Assembly (NCBI GenBank): GCA_015655225.1 | Contig: JAATFK010000063.1 | Location: 1 to 12,362 of the forward strand | DNA length: 12,362 nucleotides | Source of the DNA: Solirubrobacterales bacterium | GTDB lineage: Bacteria > Actinomycetota > Thermoleophilia > Solirubrobacterales > Solirubrobacteraceae | Reading direction: 5' to 3' | Part shown: positions 1 to 11,395 of the stretch, one piece after another | Position numbering within the stretch: position 1 is the first letter of the stretch | Layout of the letters: each line of letters opens with the position of its first letter | Program-made: the position numbers and the translations under genes | The notes under the pieces: model-generated | What the model was told of the DNA's origin: nothing | The model's database searches: none | The model's input: only the letters and a program-made list of their open reading frames with translations

Positions 1-222
1 ATCAAGGCCGACGCGCGCCTGCGGCAGATCCCGGTGGTCGTGCTGACGACCTCGAAGGACGAGGAGGACGTGTTCCGCACCTATGACCTCGGCGTCAGCG
101 GCTTCGTGACCAAGCCGGTCACGTTCGCGGGCCTGGTCGAGGTGATGCGCCACTGGACGCGGTACTGGTTCGAGGTGGTCGAGCTCCCGCTCGGAGGACC
201 GGGTGACCTCACGGCGAACTGA
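1..222 (+). CDS. Response regulator receiver protein, 3' part only
   Basis: Only the last 73 residues are in the window; the gene enters from the left edge in frame 1 with no start visible. The visible part is the second half of a CheY-like receiver fold. A hydrophobic strand ending in VVVLTTS carries the conserved Thr/Ser switch residue, a helix follows (EEDVFRTYDLGVSGF), and then comes the conserved Lys of the FVTKPV strand-loop. The phospho-acceptor Asp would lie off the window. The protein ends soon after the last helix with no output domain, so it looks like a single-domain regulator of the Rcp1/CheY type that passes phosphate to or from a kinase. Its 3' end overlaps the next gene by 20 bases, which implies one operon and translational coupling. 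A sensor kinase directly upstream is likely but not visible. Confidence 0.85.
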   Translation: MKADARLRQIPVVVLTTSKDEEDVFRTYDLGVSGFVTKPVTFAGLVEVMRHWTRYWFEVVELPLGGPGDLTAN

Positions 223-2311
223 GCCGCTCCGGGTCCTGCTGGTCGAGGACGACGAGGACGACTACGTCGTCACGCGCGACCTGCTGCGCGACCAGTCGCG
301 AGCGCGCGTCGAGCTGGACTGGTGCGCCGACTACGCGAGCGCGCTCGCGACGATCCGCCAGCAGCGCCACGACGTCTACCTGGTCGACTTCCGGCTCGGC
401 GCCCGCACCGGCCTCGACCTGATCCGCGAGGCGTTCGCAGCGCGGCCGAGAGCGCCGGTGCTGGTCCTGACCGGGCAGAGCGACTACGAGATCGACCTGG
501 AGGCGTCCGAGCTGGGCGTGACCGACTACCTCGTCAAGCAGCAGCTGGACGCCTCGACGCTCGAGCGCTCGATCCGCTACGCGGTCGGGCAGCAGCGAGC
601 GGTCGCGGAGCTGCGCCGCAGCGAGGAGCGCTACGAGCTGGCGGTCCGCGCCGCCAACGACGGCCTCTGGGACTGGGACCTCGTGCGCGACCGGATCTAC
701 CTCTCCCCCCGCTGGCACTCGCTGCTCGGGCACCCGGAGCGCTCCGGCGAGGAGTCGCCGGTCGCGTGGTTCGAGCTGGTCCACGACGAGGACCGCACGC
801 AGGTGCGGGACGCGATCGCCGCGCACCTCGCGGGCGAGACGCAGCTGCTGGAGGTCGAGCACCGCATGCGCCACGCCGACGGCACCTGGCGCTGGACGCT
901 CAGCCGGGGCCTCGCGATCCGCGACGAGGACGGCCGCGCGACGCGGATGGCGGGCTCGCTCTCGGACGTCACCGAGCGGCGCTCGGCCGAGCGCCGCCTG
1001 CAGCACGACGCGCTCCACGACGCGCTCACCGGCCTCCCCAACCGCGCGCTCTTCATGGATCGCCTCGACCACGCGCTGCGGCGGGGCGCGCGCGACGGGC
1101 GGCCGACCTGCGCGGTGCTGTTCCTCGACGTCGATCGCTTCAAGCTCGTCAACGACGGGCTCGGCCACATGGCCGGCGACGAGCTGCTGCGCCTGCTGTC
1201 GGCCCGCGTCGAGAGCGCGGTGCGGCCGGGCGACACCGTCGCGCGCCTCGGCGGCGACGAGTTCGCGATCCTGCTCGACGAGATCGAGGACGACGAGCAG
1301 CCGCTGCTGGTGGCCGAGCGGATTCAGCGCTGCATCGGGCAGGAGCTGGTGCTCGACGGCCGCACGCTGCGGGTGACCGCGAGCATCGGCGTCGCGCTCG
1401 CCGGCGACGCGACGGCGGCGGCGGAGCTGCTGCGCAACGCCGACATCGCGATGTACGACGGCAAGCGGCGGGGCGGCGGCCTCAGCGAGACGTTCGACGA
1501 GAGCATGCGCCGCCGGCGCGTCGACCGCCTTGCCCGCGAGCACGAGGTGCGGCGCGCGGTCGAGGACCGGCTGCTCCAGGTCCACTACCAGCCGATCGTG
1601 GAGCTGGCGAGCGGCCGCATCCGCGCGCTCGAGGCGCTCGCGCGGTGGCCGGAGGACTGGTCGCCGGTCTCGCCGGCGGAGTTCGTGCCGGTCGCCGAGG
1701 AGACGGGGATGATCGGAGCGCTCGGGCTGCACGTGCTGCGGTCCGCGCTCGACGCGCTGGTCGAGCTGCGACGCGCGCACCGGCTCGCGGAGGACGTCTC
1801 GGTCAGCGTGAACGTCTCGGGACGCCAGCTCGTGGACCCGCGCCTGCCGGACCAGATCTCGGCCGCGCTGAGCACCGCCGGCCTCCCGCCGCAGGCGCTC
1901 ACGCTGGAGATCACCGAGAGCATGCTGGTGCAGGAGTCGGTCCAGCTGCACGACCTCGTCTCGCGGGTCTGCGCCTCCGGCGTCGGGCTGCACCTGGACG
2001 ACTTCGGGACGGGCTACTCGTCGCTCGCGGCGCTGCAGCAGTTCCCCGTCAACGCGCTCAAGATCGACCGCAGCTTCATCAACTCCGACGCGCCCACCAG
2101 CGACGTGATCGTCCGCTCCACGATCACGCTCGCGCACAACCTCGGCATGCGGGTGATCGCCGAGGGGATCGAGACCGACCAGCAGCTCGCGCACCTCACC
2201 GAGCTGGGCTGCGACTACGGCCAGGGCTACCTCTTCTCCCGGCCGGTCAGCGTCGAGGCGAGTCAGGCGCTGCTCGACGGCTGGACGGCGGACGTCTCGG
2301 CCACGCGCTGA
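203..2311 (+). CDS. Receiver-PAS-GGDEF-EAL cyclic-di-GMP turnover protein
   Basis: A 702-residue cytoplasmic signalling protein predicted to make and/or degrade cyclic-di-GMP under control of phosphorylation. Residues 9-130 form a receiver domain, with acidic pocket E15-D17, phospho-acceptor D62 in YLVDFRLG, T90 and K112; Lys is followed by Gln where Pro is usual. Residues about 143-258 are a PAS domain ending in SDVTERR. Residues about 265-435 are a GGDEF domain with intact GGDEF at 350-354 and an RPGD inhibitory I-site at 341-344, exactly five residues before it. Residues about 450-690 are an EAL domain with E477-A478-L479, D599-D600 in DDFGTGYSSL, KIDRSF and AEGIE, all expected for an active phosphodiesterase. 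No membrane segment is seen. The GTG start at 203 is preceded by GGAGGA at 193-198, and it overlaps the upstream regulator by 20 bases. The 3' end overlaps the convergent TetR gene by 49 bases. Both catalytic domains look intact, so net activity cannot be called. Confidence 0.95.
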   Translation: MTSRRTEPLRVLLVEDDEDDYVVTRDLLRDQSRARVELDWCADYASALATIRQQRHDVYLVDFRLGARTGLDLIREAFAARPRAPVLVLTGQSDYEIDLEASELGVTDYLVKQQLDASTLERSIRYAVGQQRAVAELRRSEERYELAVRAANDGLWDWDLVRDRIYLSPRWHSLLGHPERSGEESPVAWFELVHDEDRTQVRDAIAAHLAGETQLLEVEHRMRHADGTWRWTLSRGLAIRDEDGRATRMAGSLSDVTERRSAERRLQHDALHDALTGLPNRALFMDRLDHALRRGARDGRPTCAVLFLDVDRFKLVNDGLGHMAGDELLRLLSARVESAVRPGDTVARLGGDEFAILLDEIEDDEQPLLVAERIQRCIGQELVLDGRTLRVTASIGVALAGDATAAAELLRNADIAMYDGKRRGGGLSETFDESMRRRRVDRLAREHEVRRAVEDRLLQVHYQPIVELASGRIRALEALARWPEDWSPVSPAEFVPVAEETGMIGALGLHVLRSALDALVELRRAHRLAEDVSVSVNVSGRQLVDPRLPDQISAALSTAGLPPQALTLEITESMLVQESVQLHDLVSRVCASGVGLHLDDFGTGYSSLAALQQFPVNALKIDRSFINSDAPTSDVIVRSTITLAHNLGMRVIAEGIETDQQLAHLTELGCDYGQGYLFSRPVSVEASQALLDGWTADVSATR

Positions 2312-5474: not shown

Positions 5475-6362
5475 TCAGGCGCGCGGCTCGTCGACCAGCG
5501 GCCGCCGCACCACGAGCCGCCAGTCAGGCGCAAGCATCCGCGATCTCGGGACGGTTCGCCCGCGCGTCCGCGGCACGCAGGCGTCGGGCAGCGCGACGCG
5601 CCGCCGGCCGGCGAGCAGCCCGGCGGTGCGCTGATGGTCGGCGCGCGCCTCGACGACGGGCAGCGCGGGCGGCGGCTGAAGCTCCCGCAGCGTGATCGCG
5701 CGCTCGCGCCGGCGCCCCGGCGCGGGGGTCGGCCAGCTGATCGCGACGTGCACGGGAGCGCGTCCCGCGGCGGGGTCGCCGTCGAGCCCGGCAAGGCTCG
5801 GCAGCTTGCGGCTGACGTCGTCGGCCCACGGCGCCCTGCCGCTGTCGCGCAGCCGCTGGGCCTCGCCCCCCTCTCTCCAGAGGCCCGCGACGATCCACAT
5901 CGCGACGAGCACCGCGGGTATGCCGATCACGAGCTTGCGGTACTGCGGGTTGCTCAGGAACTCGAACGCGAAGCCGACATACGGGATGTTGAAGACGACT
6001 CTGTCCTGCGTCGCCTGGGGCAGGAAGAATCTCCAGTTGTCGGGCAGTCTGTTGAAGTCGCCTCTCGTCTGGAAGGCGCGTCTGCCGTCGGCCGTCGTGG
6101 TGATCCGGTAGATCCGGTGCGTGACGAGCTTGTGGTTCGGCGACGCGCCGGGCGGCGGGCCGTAGGTGATCGGGTCGCCGACTCTCAGCGACGAGGTCGG
6201 CACCGGGCGGTCGTAGACGATCGAGCCGGCGTTGTAGGTCCCGGTCATCGAGCCGGTCTGGATCACGTAGCGGTGGAAGCCGAGCGCCGCCGGCACGAGC
6301 ATCAGCCCGGCGAGGCAGAAGAGCAGCACCATCCCCACGTTCATCCCGATCCGCGCGAGCAT
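5475..6362 (-). CDS. SipW-like (ER-type) signal peptidase I with long C-terminal tail
   Basis: A 295-residue membrane peptidase that should remove signal peptides from exported fibre proteins. A membrane segment spans about residues 8-28. The catalytic Ser is S38 in QTGSMTGTYNAGSIV. H82 in VTHRI takes the place of the Lys of ordinary bacterial signal peptidase I, which is the hallmark of the SipW/ER type. D102 in RGDFN is the third conserved site. A second membrane segment spans about 144-162. After it comes a ~130-residue Pro/Arg-rich tail not seen in the second signal peptidase here (176 residues); its role is unknown. The ATG at 6362 lies four bases after the stop of the TasA-like gene, and GGGAG sits in that joint, so the two are one operon. 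The likely substrate is that neighbour. AGA Arg codons are clustered in the catalytic part (R60, R94, R100, R105, R111, R121). Confidence 0.9.
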   Translation of the reverse strand: MLARIGMNVGMVLLFCLAGLMLVPAALGFHRYVIQTGSMTGTYNAGSIVYDRPVPTSSLRVGDPITYGPPPGASPNHKLVTHRIYRITTTADGRRAFQTRGDFNRLPDNWRFFLPQATQDRVVFNIPYVGFAFEFLSNPQYRKLVIGIPAVLVAMWIVAGLWREGGEAQRLRDSGRAPWADDVSRKLPSLAGLDGDPAAGRAPVHVAISWPTPAPGRRRERAITLRELQPPPALPVVEARADHQRTAGLLAGRRRVALPDACVPRTRGRTVPRSRMLAPDWRLVVRRPLVDEPRA

Positions 6363-6366
6363 CTCC

Positions 6367-6945
6367 CTACCCCAGCGCCGTCCACGTGAAGTCGACCGTG
6401 CTTCTGGCGTTCTCGTAAGCGTTCTCGGCGCCGCTGCCGGCGTCGGGCATGCTGACGGTGAACGAGATGCGGTGCTTGGCGCCGGCCGTCCAGGGGCCGA
6501 GGCTGGCCGTTCTGAGCGCGCCGAGCTTGCCGCTGTAGTCGATCACGGCCGCAGGGCAGGAGGACGTGCACGCGGGATCGCCGAGATCCTGGACGAGCAG
6601 GTCCAGCTCCCCCGAGAGCGCGGGGCTCGCGGGCGCGTCTACGAGGCCCGAGGCGGCGAGCTGGAAGGTCGCGCTGAGGTCGCCGGTGTTGACGATGTCG
6701 ACCGTGTCGGTGTGCGAGTGGCCCGGGGCGAGCGCGGTCGTCGTGAGCGCCGCCGAGCCGGTCGCCGTCGTGGTGAACGTGACGACGCCCGTTCTGATCG
6801 CGTTGCCGGTGTTCGCGGACGTGGCGTTGAAGTTCGCACCGCTGGTGGCTGCCAGCGCCGTCGCGATCAGGACCGCCGCGAGGCTGAAGACGAACCGTCG
6901 GACCGTGCGTTGCGGGAGTCCGGCGACGAAGGACGGCGTGCTCAC
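6367..6945 (-). CDS. TasA/CalY-like exported fibre subunit (minus cluster)
   Basis: A 192-residue exported protein. A basic start (QRTVRRF) is followed by a hydrophobic segment (about 18-34) and then SGANFNATSANTGN, the pattern of SipW-processed TasA/camelysin proteins; cleavage after SGA at residue 38 is plausible. The rest is a beta-rich domain with VDIVNTG at 82-88, matching the NNG-type strand in TasA, and a Cys pair C126-x3-C130 in GDPACTSSCPAA. The last strand reads STVDFTWTA. The protein is clearly paralogous to the product of the divergent gene at 8607, including the Cys loop. The GTG start at 6945 overlaps the stop of the EAL gene (GTGA), so the two are translationally coupled. Its own stop is four bases before the signal peptidase start. 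Bacillus TasA forms biofilm-matrix fibres; a fibre role here is inferred. Confidence 0.85.
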   Translation of the reverse strand: MSTPSFVAGLPQRTVRRFVFSLAAVLIATALAATSGANFNATSANTGNAIRTGVVTFTTTATGSAALTTTALAPGHSHTDTVDIVNTGDLSATFQLAASGLVDAPASPALSGELDLLVQDLGDPACTSSCPAAVIDYSGKLGALRTASLGPWTAGAKHRISFTVSMPDAGSGAENAYENARSTVDFTWTALG

Positions 6946-8345
6946 GCCCGGACCGGCTCGACGTGGTCGGCGCCGTGCTCGGCGTCGACCACGGGCTGCT
7001 CGAACCAGTCGCGCAGTGCCTCGACCTTGAGCGGACGGCTGAAGTAGTAGCCCTGCGCGTAGTCGCAGCCCATCTCAGCGAGCCGCCGCAGCGTCAGCTC
7101 GTCCTCGACGCCCTCGGCGACGACGCCGAGGTCGAGGTCGTGCGCGAGCCCGATCGTGGAGCGCACGATCGACTCGTCGGCGGCGTGCTGCGTCAGACTC
7201 GCGACGAACGAGCGGTCGATCTTGATCTCGCGGATCGGCATCTCGCGCAGGACCGCGAGCGAGGAGTAGCCGGTGCCGAAGTCATCGATCGAGAGGCGGG
7301 CGCCCATGTCCGACAGCGCTCGCAGGACAGCCGCCGCTCTCTCGGGATCCGCCTGGATCGCGGCCTCGGTCAGCTCGAAGCCGAGCGCGCGGGCCGGGAG
7401 GTTCCACTTCGCGAGCAGGCGCTCGACCTCTCTCGGCAGCTGGTCGTCGAGCACGTTGGCCGTCCCGAGGTTGACGTCGACACCGGCGCTCATCCCGCGC
7501 GAGCGCCAGCCGGCGCAGTCGCGCAGCGCCAGCTCGATCAGGTGCACGGTGAGCGGGCTGATCAGGTCGCTGGTCGCGGCCTGCGGCATGAACCGGTCAG
7601 GCGTGAGGAGGCCGTCCTTCGGATGGCGCCAGCGCACGAGCGACTCGACCGAGGGAACCTCCCCCGAGCGCAGGTCCACGCGCGGCTGGTAGTGCATCTC
7701 CAGCTGCTTGTCCTTGATCGCCTGCTTCAGCTCCCGCAGGATCGCGCGGCGCTTGGGGTCGTCGCGCTCGCGCAGCGCGCGCGAGGCGGCGAGCAGCCGC
7801 GGCCCGACGCCGGCCAGGAACAACAGCGCCCCGCCGAGGAGGATCAAGTCGATGCGATGCGTGCGGCGGGCGATCTCGGCCGCCACGGGGCCGTACGGGA
7901 CGTGCATCTCGAAGGCCGCCTGGGGCGTTCTCGTGTTCGTGCCGTAGAGCGGGACGACGACCTCGATCTGCTTGCCGACGGTCGTGTCGACGGGGCTCGT
8001 CGCGGCATGCGTCGTGGCGACGACGGTCTGCCCCGCGAGCGCGTTCACGACGCCTGCCGGCTTCAGGTAGGTCTGATCGATCTGGGAGTGGTCGGTCGCG
8101 TAGACGATGTGACCGTTGCGGTCCCAGACGGCGATCGACGCCATCGGGGTCAGCTGCTTGACGGCGGTCGTCGCCGCGTCGAGCGGTCTTAGCTGCGCTG
8201 CGTCGAGCCCGTGCAACTGGACGCGCAGCGCGGGGGCGAACGTCGCCTGTGCGAGGACCTGGGCGCTGTTCTGCGCGGCGGCGATTCTCTCGTCGCGGAT
8301 GTCGCTGCTCGTGACGCGCGAGATCGCGTACGCGAGCGCGCCCAC
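6942..8345 (-). CDS. Membrane sensor with EAL c-di-GMP phosphodiesterase domain
   Basis: At least 467 residues. An extracytoplasmic sensor region (about 12-160) carries MASIAVWDRNGHIVYATDHS, typical of a Cache/PAS-like double-strand core. A membrane helix spans about 166-188, and an EAL domain about 205-450. Catalytic sites are all kept: E234 (in ESL rather than EAL), N292 in VNLG, E324 and E327 in FELTE, D354-D355 in DDFGTGYSSL, K375 in IKIDRSF, E411 in AEGVED and QGYYFSRP. It should hydrolyse c-di-GMP to pGpG. There is no GGDEF domain. GTG 8345 is the first canonical start after the in-frame stop at 8498, but the frame upstream encodes LSIRPGFLLTFALLLAIG, a typical first membrane helix. The true start is therefore probably nearer 8399 (CTG) or 8422 (ATG, after a frameshift). 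Its stop overlaps the start of the TasA-like gene by four bases. Confidence 0.88.
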   Translation of the reverse strand: MGALAYAISRVTSSDIRDERIAAAQNSAQVLAQATFAPALRVQLHGLDAAQLRPLDAATTAVKQLTPMASIAVWDRNGHIVYATDHSQIDQTYLKPAGVVNALAGQTVVATTHAATSPVDTTVGKQIEVVVPLYGTNTRTPQAAFEMHVPYGPVAAEIARRTHRIDLILLGGALLFLAGVGPRLLAASRALRERDDPKRRAILRELKQAIKDKQLEMHYQPRVDLRSGEVPSVESLVRWRHPKDGLLTPDRFMPQAATSDLISPLTVHLIELALRDCAGWRSRGMSAGVDVNLGTANVLDDQLPREVERLLAKWNLPARALGFELTEAAIQADPERAAAVLRALSDMGARLSIDDFGTGYSSLAVLREMPIREIKIDRSFVASLTQHAADESIVRSTIGLAHDLDLGVVAEGVEDELTLRRLAEMGCDYAQGYYFSRPLKVEALRDWFEQPVVDAEHGADHVEPVRA

Positions 8346-8399
8346 GCCGATCGCAAGCAGCAGAGCGAACGTGAGGAGGAAGCCGGGACGGATGGACAG

Positions 8400-8606
8400 G
8401 CGCGAGGTGATGGAGGCGTCATCGACACGACAGCCCCAAAAGTCCAGTCCTCTAGCCCGATATACGAGAGGCGTGCCGTCTGCGCGCCATCCTCCTCAAG
8501 CCCGCGTCCGGACCGTCGATGAATGTCGTGGCGCCGGCTGCAGATCGTGTCAAGGCCGGCAGGTTCAACGAGCACAGTTACTTCCCTCTTAACGAAGGAT
8601 CCGCGT
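8400..8606. promoter_or_regulatory. Divergent control region of the two fibre clusters
   Basis: About 200 bases separate the two divergent clusters and should hold both promoters. It contains an inverted repeat CCTCT (8449-8453)/AGAGG (8467-8471) with a 13-base AT-richer centre around GATATACG, a candidate regulator site. The hexamer GCCGGC occurs twice (8533-8538, 8555-8560) and could pair in a plus-strand leader. I saw no GEMM-type c-di-GMP riboswitch and no promoter I would place with confidence. GAAGGA (8594-8599) is the ribosome site of the plus-strand gene. Confidence 0.5.
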
Positions 8607-9179
8607 ATGTCTCGCTTCAAGGCGCTGTGGTCAGCGTCCCCGAGGAAGATCATCCTCGCCCTGATCGTCGTCCTTGCCGCAGCGGGCGTCGCCGTCGGAT
8701 CAGGCGCGAACTTCAACTCGGCCTCCGCCAACCCGTCGAACACCTTCAGCTCCGGGACGCTCTCGCAGAGCAACTCGAGATCGGGCGCAGCGATCCTCAC
8801 CGCGTCGAACCTCAAGCCGGGCGGAAGCGCCACCGGCACCGTCGACATCGCCAACACCGGCTCGGTCACGGGCGCGTTCACGCTCACCAGAGCGACTCCG
8901 GTCGACAGTCCCGCGAGCCCGGCGCTCTCGGCCAGACTCACCGTGGTGATCACCGACCAGGGCGACCCCTCGTGCACCAGCAGTTGTCCCGCGGCATCCA
9001 CCGTCTACAGCGGCACGCTCGCCGGCATGGGCGCGATCGCCCTTGGCAACTTCACCGCCGGACAGAGACATCGTTATCAGTTCGTCGTCACCTTCCCCGA
9101 CAGCGGGACCGCCGGCGGCGACAACGCCTACCAGGGCGCCTCGACGACGCTCGACTACACCTTCACCTCCAACTCGTAG
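8607..9179 (+). CDS. tasA-like: TasA-like exported fibre subunit (plus cluster)
   Basis: A 190-residue exported protein. A basic start (MSRFKALWSASPRK) is followed by a hydrophobic segment at 15-31 and then SGANFNSASANPSNTFSSGTL, which tracks the mature start of Bacillus TasA (Phe-containing start, then FASGTL). SNLKPG at 67-72 matches the NLKPGD segment of TasA, and TVDIANTGS (78-86) its next strand. C123-x3-C127 in GDPSCTSSCPAA is shared with the paralog at 6367-6945. The end is beta-rich, reading STTLDYTFTSNS. ATG 8607 has GAAGGA at 8594-8599, seven bases upstream; in-frame GTG 8523 has no such site and adds a non-matching stretch. A strong hairpin follows the stop, as expected for an abundant structural protein placed first in its operon. 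Four of its seven Arg codons are AGA. The fibre role is inferred from family. Confidence 0.87.
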   Translation: MSRFKALWSASPRKIILALIVVLAAAGVAVGSGANFNSASANPSNTFSSGTLSQSNSRSGAAILTASNLKPGGSATGTVDIANTGSVTGAFTLTRATPVDSPASPALSARLTVVITDQGDPSCTSSCPAASTVYSGTLAGMGAIALGNFTAGQRHRYQFVVTFPDSGTAGGDNAYQGASTTLDYTFTSNS

Positions 9180-9203
9180 GAAGAGGACCCTCGCCGAAGC
9201 GAT

Positions 9204-9234
9204 CGGGAGGCCCGTGACCATCACGGGCCTCCCG
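9204..9234 (+). terminator. Perfect 14-bp hairpin after the TasA-like gene
   Basis: Bases 9204-9217 and 9221-9234 are perfect reverse complements (14 pairs, mostly G-C) with a three-base loop CCA. It starts 25 bases after the stop of the TasA-like gene and is followed by TCGTTC rather than a clear U-run. Only 27 bases separate it from the next start. It may act as a partial terminator or a 3'-stabilising structure that gives more first-gene mRNA than downstream mRNA. Confidence 0.75.
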
Positions 9235-9261
9235 TCGTTCAGCGCAGACGCTTCCCCCACC

Positions 9262-9870
9262 ATGTCCGACGCCTCCCGCCCCCTCGCCATCAAGCTCCTC
9301 GCCATCGCGGCCGTGCTGATCCTGAGCGCGATCGTGTGGTCGGGCGGGACGTGGTCGTCGTTCGACCGGACCGCATCGTCGCCGGGCAACTCCGTCGCCA
9401 CCGGCACCGTCGCGCTCTCCGACAACGACGGCGGCAGCGCGCTGCTGTCGCTCACCGGCGCGACCAACGGCAGCACGGTGACCGCCTGCACGAGAGTCAC
9501 CTACGGCGGGACGGTCCCCGCCGACGTGCGGCTGTACGGGACGGTCGGCGGGACCGGACTCGCGAGCTTCCTCACACTCACGATCACGCGCGGCACGATC
9601 GCCGGGACGCCCGCCGCGAAGTCGTGCACGAACTTCGTCGCCGACACGACGAACTACCTCTCCAGAGGCGCAGGCGTGATCTACAGCGGCACCCTCTCGG
9701 ACTTCCCCACCTCGGCCTCGACCGCGCTGGTCGACCCGACGAGCGGCGTGGATCAGGAGTGGGTGGCGGGCAGCACCCACGCCTACAGACTGACCGCGAC
9801 GATGAACAGCGCGAGCGGCGCGAGCAAGACCGCGACCGCCGACTTCACGTGGCTGGCGGCGAGCACATGA
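9262..9870 (+). CDS. TasA/camelysin-like exported protein, second subunit
   Basis: A 202-residue exported protein. Hydrophobic segment 9-27 is followed by SGGTWSSFDRTASSPGNSVATG, very close to the GGTWAAFND...FASG signal and mature start of TasA, so SipW cleavage around W31-S33 is likely. VALSDNDGGSALLSL (50-64) is followed by a beta-rich domain with C76 and C122, which may form one disulphide. The final strand TATADFTWLA (190-199) resembles the end of the other two subunits. It is more distant from them than they are from each other, and lacks the CTSSC loop, so it may be a minor or capping subunit. ATG 9262 has no clear ribosome site; GTG 9214 would start inside the hairpin. Its stop overlaps the signal peptidase start by four bases (ATGA). 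Three of seven Arg codons are AGA. Confidence 0.8.
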   Translation: MSDASRPLAIKLLAIAAVLILSAIVWSGGTWSSFDRTASSPGNSVATGTVALSDNDGGSALLSLTGATNGSTVTACTRVTYGGTVPADVRLYGTVGGTGLASFLTLTITRGTIAGTPAAKSCTNFVADTTNYLSRGAGVIYSGTLSDFPTSASTALVDPTSGVDQEWVAGSTHAYRLTATMNSASGASKTATADFTWLAAST

Positions 9871-10397
9871 GCGCCGTCTCCCCCGCCCTGGGCCTCCCCC
9901 GCCGCCGGGCGCTCGGCTGGGCGAACCGCGGCGCGACGGTCGTCCTCGTCCTCGTGCTCGCGCTCCTGGCGCTCGGCGTCGGGCTGCGCACCGCGGGAAT
10001 CAGCACGCTGGTCGACTACAGCGGCAGCATGGCGCCGGCGATCGGCGCGGGCGACCTCGTGCTCGATCGCGGGACCGTCGCCGCGCACCTCGTCCCCGAC
10101 CAGATCGCGACGATCCCCGACCCGATCAGCGGCCGCCTGATCACCCACCGGGTCATCTCCGTCACGCGCGCCGGCGACGACGCCGTCACGGTCGTGACGC
10201 GCGGCGACGCCAACGACGCGTCCGAGCGCTGGTCGCTGCGGGACGAAGCGCCGGTCCGTCGCGTGATCGGCCACGTGCCGGGCGCCGGGCGCGTCGTGCT
10301 GTGGCTCTCCTCGCCGACGCTGCGGCTGGCGCTCGCGGTGCTCGGCGGCGGCCTGCTGCTCGCCGGGATCCTGCGGCGCGTCTGGAGCCGGGGATGA
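9867..10397 (+). CDS. sipW-like: SipW-like (ER-type) signal peptidase I
   Basis: A 176-residue membrane peptidase. Membrane segment about 22-42; catalytic S54 in DYSGSMAPAIGAGDLVL; H94 in LITHRVI replaces the Lys of standard signal peptidase I; D114 in TRGDAND; second membrane segment about 152-170, with only a few residues after it. The length and layout are those of the SipW group. Its start overlaps the stop of the camelysin-like gene (ATGA) and its stop overlaps the start of the Ig-like gene (ATGA), so it is locked in one translation unit with two likely substrates. It uses few or no AGA codons, unlike its upstream neighbour. It shares only the catalytic plan with the minus-cluster peptidase, so the pair are not recent copies. 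Confidence 0.92.
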   Translation: MSAVSPALGLPRRRALGWANRGATVVLVLVLALLALGVGLRTAGISTLVDYSGSMAPAIGAGDLVLDRGTVAAHLVPDQIATIPDPISGRLITHRVISVTRAGDDAVTVVTRGDANDASERWSLRDEAPVRRVIGHVPGAGRVVLWLSSPTLRLALAVLGGGLLLAGILRRVWSRG

Positions 10398-11395
10398 TGC
10401 GGCGTCCGCCGCTGCTGATGGCCGCCGGCGCGTGTCTCCTCGCCCTCGCCTTCGCGGGACCCGCGCTGGAGCGGACCGCGTCCGACTTCACCGCCTCGTC
10501 GAGCAACACCGGCAACAGCTTCGCGGCCGCCGCGCCGGCCAACGCCGCGCCGGTCGTCTCCAGCGCGGTGATCGACAAGGCTGCCGGGGGCGTCGCAGGC
10601 TACGTGAAGCGCTCGGGGACGTTCTACGTCTATGCGAACGCGACCGACGACCATGCCGTCTCCTCCGTCAGAGCGACCGTCACGAAGGTGACCGGCTCCT
10701 CGACCGCTGTCGTGCTGAGCCCGGGGACGTTCACGGCGGCGGGCGTCAGCTACGGCTACCGCAGCGCGCTGCTGACCGCCAGCAGCTCCGTCAGCGGGAC
10801 GCCGTCGTTCACGGTGACGGCGACCGACGCCTCGGCGCTGACCGACACGTTCACCGGGTCGGTGGTCGCGGACTCGACGGCGCCGACCGCCAGCGCGGTC
10901 TCGACGGCGAACCACTCGGGCGGGATCGCGGGGCGCGGCGAGCAGGGCGACACCGCGACGATCACGTTCAGCGAGGCGATCGAGCCCGACTCGATCCTCG
11001 ACGGCTGGGACGGCACGGCGACCGACGTGCAGGCCGCGATCATCGACGGCGGCGGCTCGGGCGACGACCTGCTGCGCGTCTACGACGAGTCGGCGCTCGA
11101 CCCCAGCAAGTACCTCCCGACCGGGACGATCGACCTCGGCCGCTCGGACTTCGTCACGAGCGGCTCCTACGCGGTCTTCGGGCTCGCGAGCGGCGATGGG
11201 ACGTCGTCGAGGATGACGCTCAGCGGCAGAGTCCTCACGATCACGCTCGGCTCGCTCGACTACGGCACGTCGAACACCTCCACCGGAGCCGGCACCGAGC
11301 GCTACACGCCGGTCACGACCCTCACCGACCTCGCCGGCAACGCCGCCACGACGACGGCGGTCGCCGGCAGCGGAACGTCGCACCGGGTCTTCTAG
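10394..11395 (+). CDS. Exported Ig-like repeat protein with TasA-type N-terminus
   Basis: A 333-residue protein. The start MMRRPPLLMAAGACLLALAFAG is a signal peptide, followed by ERTASDFTASSSNTGNSFAAA, the same F-x-A-S-S-N-T-G-N pattern as the neighbouring subunits. Residues about 52-158 look like one Ig-like beta-sandwich (VSSAVIDKAAGG, FYVYANATDDHAVSSV). Residues about 160-333 hold a second with TITFSEAIEPDSI, typical of bacterial SbsA/Big-type Ig-like domains, and end in TPVTTLTDLAGNAATT. No sortase motif or membrane anchor is seen at the C-terminus. It probably decorates, anchors or terminates the fibre. ATG 10394 overlaps the signal peptidase stop by four bases; ATG 10397 is a nearby alternative. 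Its TAG stop shares the CTAG at 11392-11395 with the stop of the convergent LuxR gene. Confidence 0.8.
   Translation: MMRRPPLLMAAGACLLALAFAGPALERTASDFTASSSNTGNSFAAAAPANAAPVVSSAVIDKAAGGVAGYVKRSGTFYVYANATDDHAVSSVRATVTKVTGSSTAVVLSPGTFTAAGVSYGYRSALLTASSSVSGTPSFTVTATDASALTDTFTGSVVADSTAPTASAVSTANHSGGIAGRGEQGDTATITFSEAIEPDSILDGWDGTATDVQAAIIDGGGSGDDLLRVYDESALDPSKYLPTGTIDLGRSDFVTSGSYAVFGLASGDGTSSRMTLSGRVLTITLGSLDYGTSNTSTGAGTERYTPVTTLTDLAGNAATTTAVAGSGTSHRVF

What the first reader, a model, noticed from the sequence alone, without database searches (positions are those of the whole stretch)
5475..11395. Divergent twin SipW/TasA-type fibre clusters with a built-in c-di-GMP phosphodiesterase
Seven genes in two divergent operons encode three TasA/camelysin-like subunits, two ER-type signal peptidases, an Ig-like surface protein and an EAL phosphodiesterase. 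Each peptidase is joined to its likely substrates by 4-nt overlaps or a 4-nt gap. The classic system is tapA-sipW-tasA of Bacillus; two different SipW copies plus an EAL protein translationally coupled to a fibre subunit is an arrangement I do not recall as described. It suggests a c-di-GMP-tuned extracellular matrix or appendage in a high-GC Gram-positive relative.
Basis: partly seen in the sequence, partly recalled or inferred. Interest (0 to 1): 0.78.

Follow-up and report, generated by a model that had tools for sequence, protein, structure and literature searches.

The report
Two-peptidase TasA fibre locus with phosphodiesterase
A probable actinobacterium carries, side by side, two different enzyme-and-subunit sets for building Bacillus-like protein fibres on its surface, plus a membrane protein that probably destroys the signal molecule c-di-GMP; in relatives that protein and a fibre gene appear to stay together, which points to locally controlled fibre building that has not yet been tested.

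Summary
The seven genes, their coordinates and their 4-nt joints are real. TasA-A (6367-6945) and SubC (9262-9870) were modelled; for each, the B. subtilis TasA fibre is the only PDB Foldseek match below 1e-3. TasA-B is 47% identical to TasA-A and passes Pfam M73. Both peptidases keep the Ser/His/Asp of ER-type signal peptidases but lie in different parts of a 55-row tree: SipW1 in a well-supported clade of 16 (TasA-type subunits nearby in 15), SipW2 among the other 36 (SubC-type subunits nearby in 34; that group is weakly supported). The EAL protein keeps its catalytic residues. Its relatives share contig lengths with TasA and SubC relatives far above chance; one contig shows EAL-TasA-SipW directly. 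A general rule 'c-di-GMP gene beside SipW' was tested and is not clearly supported. A new variant of a known kind; cleavage, assembly and c-di-GMP control are inferred.

The parts
5475..6362 (-). SipW1: ER-type signal peptidase with a long C-terminal tail
   Evidence: TIGR02228 61.7 bits, over its cut-off; Ser38, His82 and Asp102 invariant in the 23 SipW sequences aligned; tree clade of 16 rows, support 100/99
6367..6945 (-). TasA-A: predicted donor-strand fibre subunit, SGA|NF signal
6942..8411 (-). EAL protein with two hydrophobic stretches (read by eye) and a Cache-like region between them; start uncertain (CTG 8399, ATC 8411 or GTG 8345)
   Evidence: Pfam EAL 2.1e-68; catalytic positions conserved in alignment A2; sCache_3_2 at E <= 0.05 in 9 of 36 A2 members, not in the window copy
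8412..8606 (.). divergent intergenic region between the EAL and TasA-B genes
   Evidence: gene positions; no Rfam match here; no sigma-70 consensus
8607..9179 (+). TasA-B: TasA-like subunit with a SipW1-type SGA|NF signal
   Evidence: Pfam Peptidase_M73 30.4 bits; 47% identical to TasA-A over 91% (P0067); motif
9204..9234 (+). 14-bp perfect hairpin between TasA-B and SubC, possible terminator or attenuator; no T run after it
   Evidence: z -6.2 for the 85-nt stretch, 0 of 200 shuffles fold as well; not reported by the T-tail terminator scan
9262..9870 (+). SubC: second TasA-fold subunit family, TWS|xF signal, two invariant Cys
   Evidence: Model pLDDT 82.7, pTM 0.71; only PDB match under 1e-3 is TasA fibre 8aur, E 2.3e-5, TMq 0.47; alignment A3
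9867..10397 (+). SipW2: ER-type signal peptidase, outside the SipW1 clade
   Evidence: TIGR02228 49.4 bits, just under the cut-off; Ser/His/Asp conserved; tree, long branch
10394..11395 (+).
   Evidence: N-terminus; homologues beside other SipW genes; no family match

Best explanation
The locus makes extracellular protein fibres of the TasA kind through two parallel lines. SipW1 removes the signal of TasA-A and TasA-B (SGA|NF); SipW2 removes that of SubC and probably of IgD (T-x-S|x-F). The freed N-terminal segment then acts as the donor strand that completes the next subunit, as in B. subtilis TasA fibres; IgD, which has a donor-like N-terminus on other domains, may start or cap a fibre. The membrane EAL protein reads an outside cue through its Cache-like region and lowers c-di-GMP locally, its translation being coupled to that of TasA-A. 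Shown: genes, joints, predicted folds of two subunits, conserved catalytic residues, SipW-subunit pairing, motif difference, EAL-subunit linkage (one contig directly, others by equal contig length). Inferred: cleavage specificity, fibre assembly, role of IgD, the cue, and the direction and target of c-di-GMP control.
For: Folds: TasA-A; SubC. Peptidase residues. Pairing: (of 16 rows in the SipW1 clade, 15 have TasA-type subunits within 3.5 kb, 13 only these; of the other 36 rows, 34 have SubC-type). Motifs: A1, 31 sequences: S-G-A in 31, then N in 29, then F 30 or Y 1; A3, 36 sequences: T 36, W 28 or F 8, S 34, any, then F 26 or L 10; S[GNA]AxF/Y/W in 14 of 14 TasA-type subunits of at least 100 bits in non-twin SipW1-clade clusters, 0 of 45 SubC-type subunits in the others. 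P2' Phe as a SipW-substrate feature: PMC10269814 (abstract and passages). Donor strand: PMC9674648 (passages). EAL linkage: G115 contig L067 has EAL-TasA-SipW in order; 13 TasA-EAL and 11 SubC-EAL equal contig lengths against 0.45 and 0.98 expected (one of the 13, 1490 nt, is too short to hold both genes).
Confidence: 0.6

Rival explanations
1. Two independent fibre systems that merely lie next to each other; the EAL gene is a passenger or acts on global c-di-GMP and does not control the fibres.
For: The two kinds of cluster lie apart in G164, G168 and G227. c-di-GMP genes are common (474 GGDEF and 173 EAL matches in 23 genomes of 87.5 Mb), and 7 of 63 SipW clusters have one within 3 kb against 2.7-3.7 expected. 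The genome itself has 22 EAL and 31 GGDEF matches.
Against: EAL relatives recur at equal contig lengths with TasA and SubC relatives, EAL-TasA-SipW lie in order in G115, and the EAL and TasA-A genes overlap by 4 nt.
Confidence: 0.3
2. The EAL protein is not an enzyme but a c-di-GMP receptor of the LapD kind (recalled) that signals outward to control processing or release of the fibre.
For: Membrane layout with a region outside the cell, and coupling to a surface-protein gene.
Against: The positions needed for catalysis (recalled) are kept in the window and nearly all of the 36 aligned sequences; one has Asn at the Lys position. LapD-type receptors have degenerate active sites (recalled).
Confidence: 0.1
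3. One peptidase can process all four exported proteins; the second copy is redundant and the motif difference reflects only ancestry of the subunits.
For: Motif and family are confounded; in B. subtilis one SipW handles TasA and TapA (PMC9674648 passages).
Against: Each peptidase group keeps its own subunit family in the fetched clusters of the order, and both copies have intact catalytic residues.
Confidence: 0.25

Closest known systems
tapA-sipW-tasA of Bacillus subtilis
   Same: ER-type SipW next to jelly-roll subunits with an aromatic P2' residue; the TasA fibre is the top structural match
   Different: Two unlike SipW and three subunits in one locus, IgD but no product named TapA, and a coupled EAL protein; other phylum
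AbpA bundling pili of Pyrobaculum calidifontis (PDB 7ueg)
   Different: Archaeal; its paper is not held, so known here only from the PDB title and a citation in PMC9674648
EAL phosphodiesterases with an sCache-like sensor
   Same: Region outside the membrane weakly like sCache_3_2, and a canonical EAL domain
   Different: Gene overlaps a fibre-subunit gene; no GGDEF part

Membership tests
TasA/CalY (camelysin) fibre subunits | TasA-like beta-sandwich fold | tested here: met
TasA/CalY (camelysin) fibre subunits | Pfam PF12389 or NCBIfam TasA model over cut-off | tested here: inconclusive
   Pfam met by TasA-B only (30.4 against 22.5); NCBIfam TasA 22.5 bits for TasA-B against cut-off 450
TasA/CalY (camelysin) fibre subunits | Aromatic residue two positions after the cleavage site (P2') | tested here: met
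   F at the predicted P2' of TasA-A, TasA-B and SubC; among the 36 SubC relatives aligned 10 have Leu; cleavage itself not shown
TasA/CalY (camelysin) fibre subunits | Assembles into fibres by donor-strand exchange | not testable with these tools
   Only a low-confidence N-terminal segment before the sandwich in both models
SipW / ER-type signal peptidase I | Ser/His active site of the ER type | tested here: met
   S38, H82 (and D102) invariant in 23 chosen sequences, both window copies included
SipW / ER-type signal peptidase I | TIGR02228 over cut-off | tested here: inconclusive
   SipW1 61.7 met; SipW2 49.4 under 51.85
Bacillus SipW equivalog NF046067 | score over 190 bits | tested here: not met
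   52.4 and 36.3 bits
c-di-GMP phosphodiesterase (EAL) | EAL domain with catalytic residues | tested here: met
   Pfam EAL; E284, N342, E374, E377, D404, D405, E461 and Q481 invariant and K425 nearly so in 36 sequences; which positions are catalytic is recalled
c-di-GMP phosphodiesterase (EAL) | hydrolyses c-di-GMP | not testable with these tools
   needs an assay

The most novel reading that the evidence does not exclude
Two separate signal-peptidase/fibre codes, SGA|NF read by one SipW lineage and T-W/F-S|x-F read by another, have been brought together in one locus under a local, outside-sensing c-di-GMP switch, giving a composite fibre built from two separately gated subunit lines.
Probability: 0.3. 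Interest if true: 0.75.

Novelty: new variant of a known kind. Interest (0 to 1): 0.56.

Why it matters
The TasA fibre papers seen here concern Bacillus. If the two codes hold, they give a natural pair of signal peptidases with separate substrate rules, testable by swapping short motifs in laboratory strains, and a case where c-di-GMP turnover is tied to one fibre locus in Actinobacteriota.

Tried and rejected
Tested and not clearly supported: a general association of GGDEF/EAL genes with SipW loci. 8 of 65 SipW rows (7 of 63 clusters) have one within 3 kb; 2.7-3.7 clusters expected from the rate in 23 chosen genomes; P(7 or more) 0.02-0.08, and P(5 or more) 0.14-0.32 if the three clusters of one genus count once. 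The 65 rows are the stronger of 80 places listed; the 15 weaker places (above about 2e-20) were not counted. One of these, G008:C89, has a GGDEF gene about 2 kb off. Contig ends shorten some flanks.

No Rfam match above its cut-off and no c-di-GMP riboswitch among the two weak hits. No sigma-70 consensus promoter; the one terminator-like site lies inside the EAL gene, 1.1 expected. The SubC profile found nothing relevant among PDB sequences. The G026 EAL protein is an outgroup type with no TasA near it. Papers: ten searches (listings and starts of abstracts) showed no paper on an actinobacterial TasA/SipW locus with an EAL protein. Most subscription journals are not held, so this is no proof of absence. 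Read: PMC9674648 (passages), PMC5422440 (one passage), PMC10269814 (abstract and passages).

Rows chosen or dropped: A1 holds 31 of the 82 hits; A2 the window and 35 of the 120 listed (of 7213); A3 the window and 35 of the 120 listed (of 337); A4 23 chosen SipW. The tree has 55 of 65 SipW rows (E <= 1e-30, at least 130 aa, distinct); 3 of the 55 fall in neither count (16 + 36). In one search subunits under 100 bits were left out; 6 of 45 SubC-type subunits missed the second expression; 2 of 14 TasA-type ones matched both; of four TasA genes in the twin loci one (L066) is cut by the contig end and shows no signal. One search, meant to read the protein after each SipW, picked wrong frames in several rows, the window among them, and is not used. 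In one search the EAL query was in the wrong frame; redone.

Full report
What is there. The window is a whole contig of an incomplete genome (3.9 Mb, 729 contigs, 77% complete). On the minus strand lie EAL, TasA-A and SipW1; on the plus strand TasA-B, SubC, SipW2 and an Ig-like protein, IgD. Their joints were checked base by base. Only these two SipW-like genes were found in the held genome.

Peptidases. Both have Ser, His and Asp at positions invariant in 23 chosen sequences. A search of 232 genomes of the order found SipW-like genes in 61, at 80 places. I fetched neighbourhoods for the 65 strongest and kept 55 for a tree. SipW1 falls in a clade of 16 rows (support 100/99), with G115 and G160 as its nearest (3 rows, 100/99). 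SipW2 lies among the other 36 rows, a group with weak support (70/85), on a long branch. Of the 16 rows, 15 have TasA-type subunits within 3.5 kb (13 only these, 2 both types, 1 none); of the 36, 34 have SubC-type. 15 of the 36 also have a protein closer to the TasA profile; two of these rows are the twin loci, and the two such proteins of at least 100 bits elsewhere carry neither motif. G164, G168 and G227 carry both kinds at separate places.

Signals. In A1 the predicted site reads S-G-A in 31 of 31 and an aromatic residue two positions on in 31 of 31 (30 F, 1 Y); in A3 it reads T (36 of 36), W or F (36 of 36), S (34 of 36) and, two on, F (26) or L (10). PMC10269814 describes Phe at P2' and Trp at P2 of TasA as features that the ordinary peptidase LepB handles poorly and the ER-type SipW handles (abstract and passages). 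Across loci, S[GNA]AxF/Y/W occurs in 14 of 14 TasA-type subunits of at least 100 bits in non-twin SipW1-clade clusters and in 0 of 45 SubC-type subunits elsewhere; the expressions were written after seeing the sequences. TasA-B has GSGANF and so belongs, by motif, to SipW1; it is also separated from SubC by a hairpin. The N-terminus of IgD (TAS-DF) looks more like the second type. Motif and family are inherited together, so this is one line of evidence, not two.

EAL protein. The positions recalled as catalytic are kept. The part before the EAL domain has two hydrophobic stretches, read by eye, and matches Cache domains weakly: sCache_3_2 at E <= 0.05 in 9 of 36 aligned sequences, best 7e-5, not in the window copy. 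Relatives begin at the equivalent of ATC 8411 or CTG 8399; neither is a usual start, and GTG 8345 would cut the first stretch.

Is the arrangement conserved? In held genomes one further contig (G115, L067) shows EAL, TasA and SipW in the same order, with 14 nt between EAL and TasA. Full-length matches passed 1e-110 in 3 of 399 genomes of the class: the window's own, G115, and G026, an outgroup type without TasA nearby. In the protein database, 82 TasA-A hits and 119 EAL hits share 13 contig lengths (0.45 expected, at most 2 in 60 shifted comparisons; one of the 13, 1490 nt, is too short to hold both genes, leaving 12); 119 SubC and 119 EAL hits share 11 (0.98 expected, at most 4); TasA-A and SubC share 11 (1.6 expected, at most 5, and the 972-nt one is too short). 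The window's own contig was left out. The EAL and SubC lists are the best hits shown, so more may exist; equal length is not proof of the same contig, nor of adjacency. Two Conexibacter records have TasA-A and SubC tags 15 apart (VKB25_01925/01910 and VFS37_04770/04785), which is three genes if tags run by fives (recalled), as in the window.

A result against a broader claim. c-di-GMP genes are not clearly enriched near SipW loci in general: 7 of 63 clusters against 2.7-3.7 expected (P 0.02-0.08; 0.14-0.32 if one genus counts once).

Verdict. The system is a variant of the TasA/SipW fibre system, with two peptidase lineages and a linked EAL protein. Cleavage, fibre assembly and c-di-GMP control remain to be tested.

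Noticed in passing
window 203-2311 (+): Response regulator-PAS-GGDEF-EAL protein in the same window, with four genes between it and SipW1.
   Followed up: no
window 8345-8411 (-): The EAL gene has no usual start codon where its homologues begin (ATC 8411, CTG 8399); GTG 8345 lies inside the first hydrophobic stretch.
   Followed up: partly
window 9240-9264 (+): SubC has no Shine-Dalgarno-like sequence before its ATG and follows a strong hairpin; it may be read from a leaderless transcript.
   Followed up: no
   Followed up: partly
L139, L141, L142: GGDEF gene 2.3 kb from a SipW on the opposite strand, kept in three genomes of one genus.
   Followed up: no
L154 9955-10434 (-): GGDEF domain 125 bp from a SipW with no TasA-like gene found near it.
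   Followed up: no
L073 4055-9174 (-): PAS-GGDEF-EAL gene downstream of a SipW cluster that also holds a thrombospondin-repeat protein with a GSGAAF signal.
   Followed up: partly
L066 7340-8158 (-): TasA-like protein with RTX calcium-binding repeats at the end of the twin cluster.
   Followed up: no
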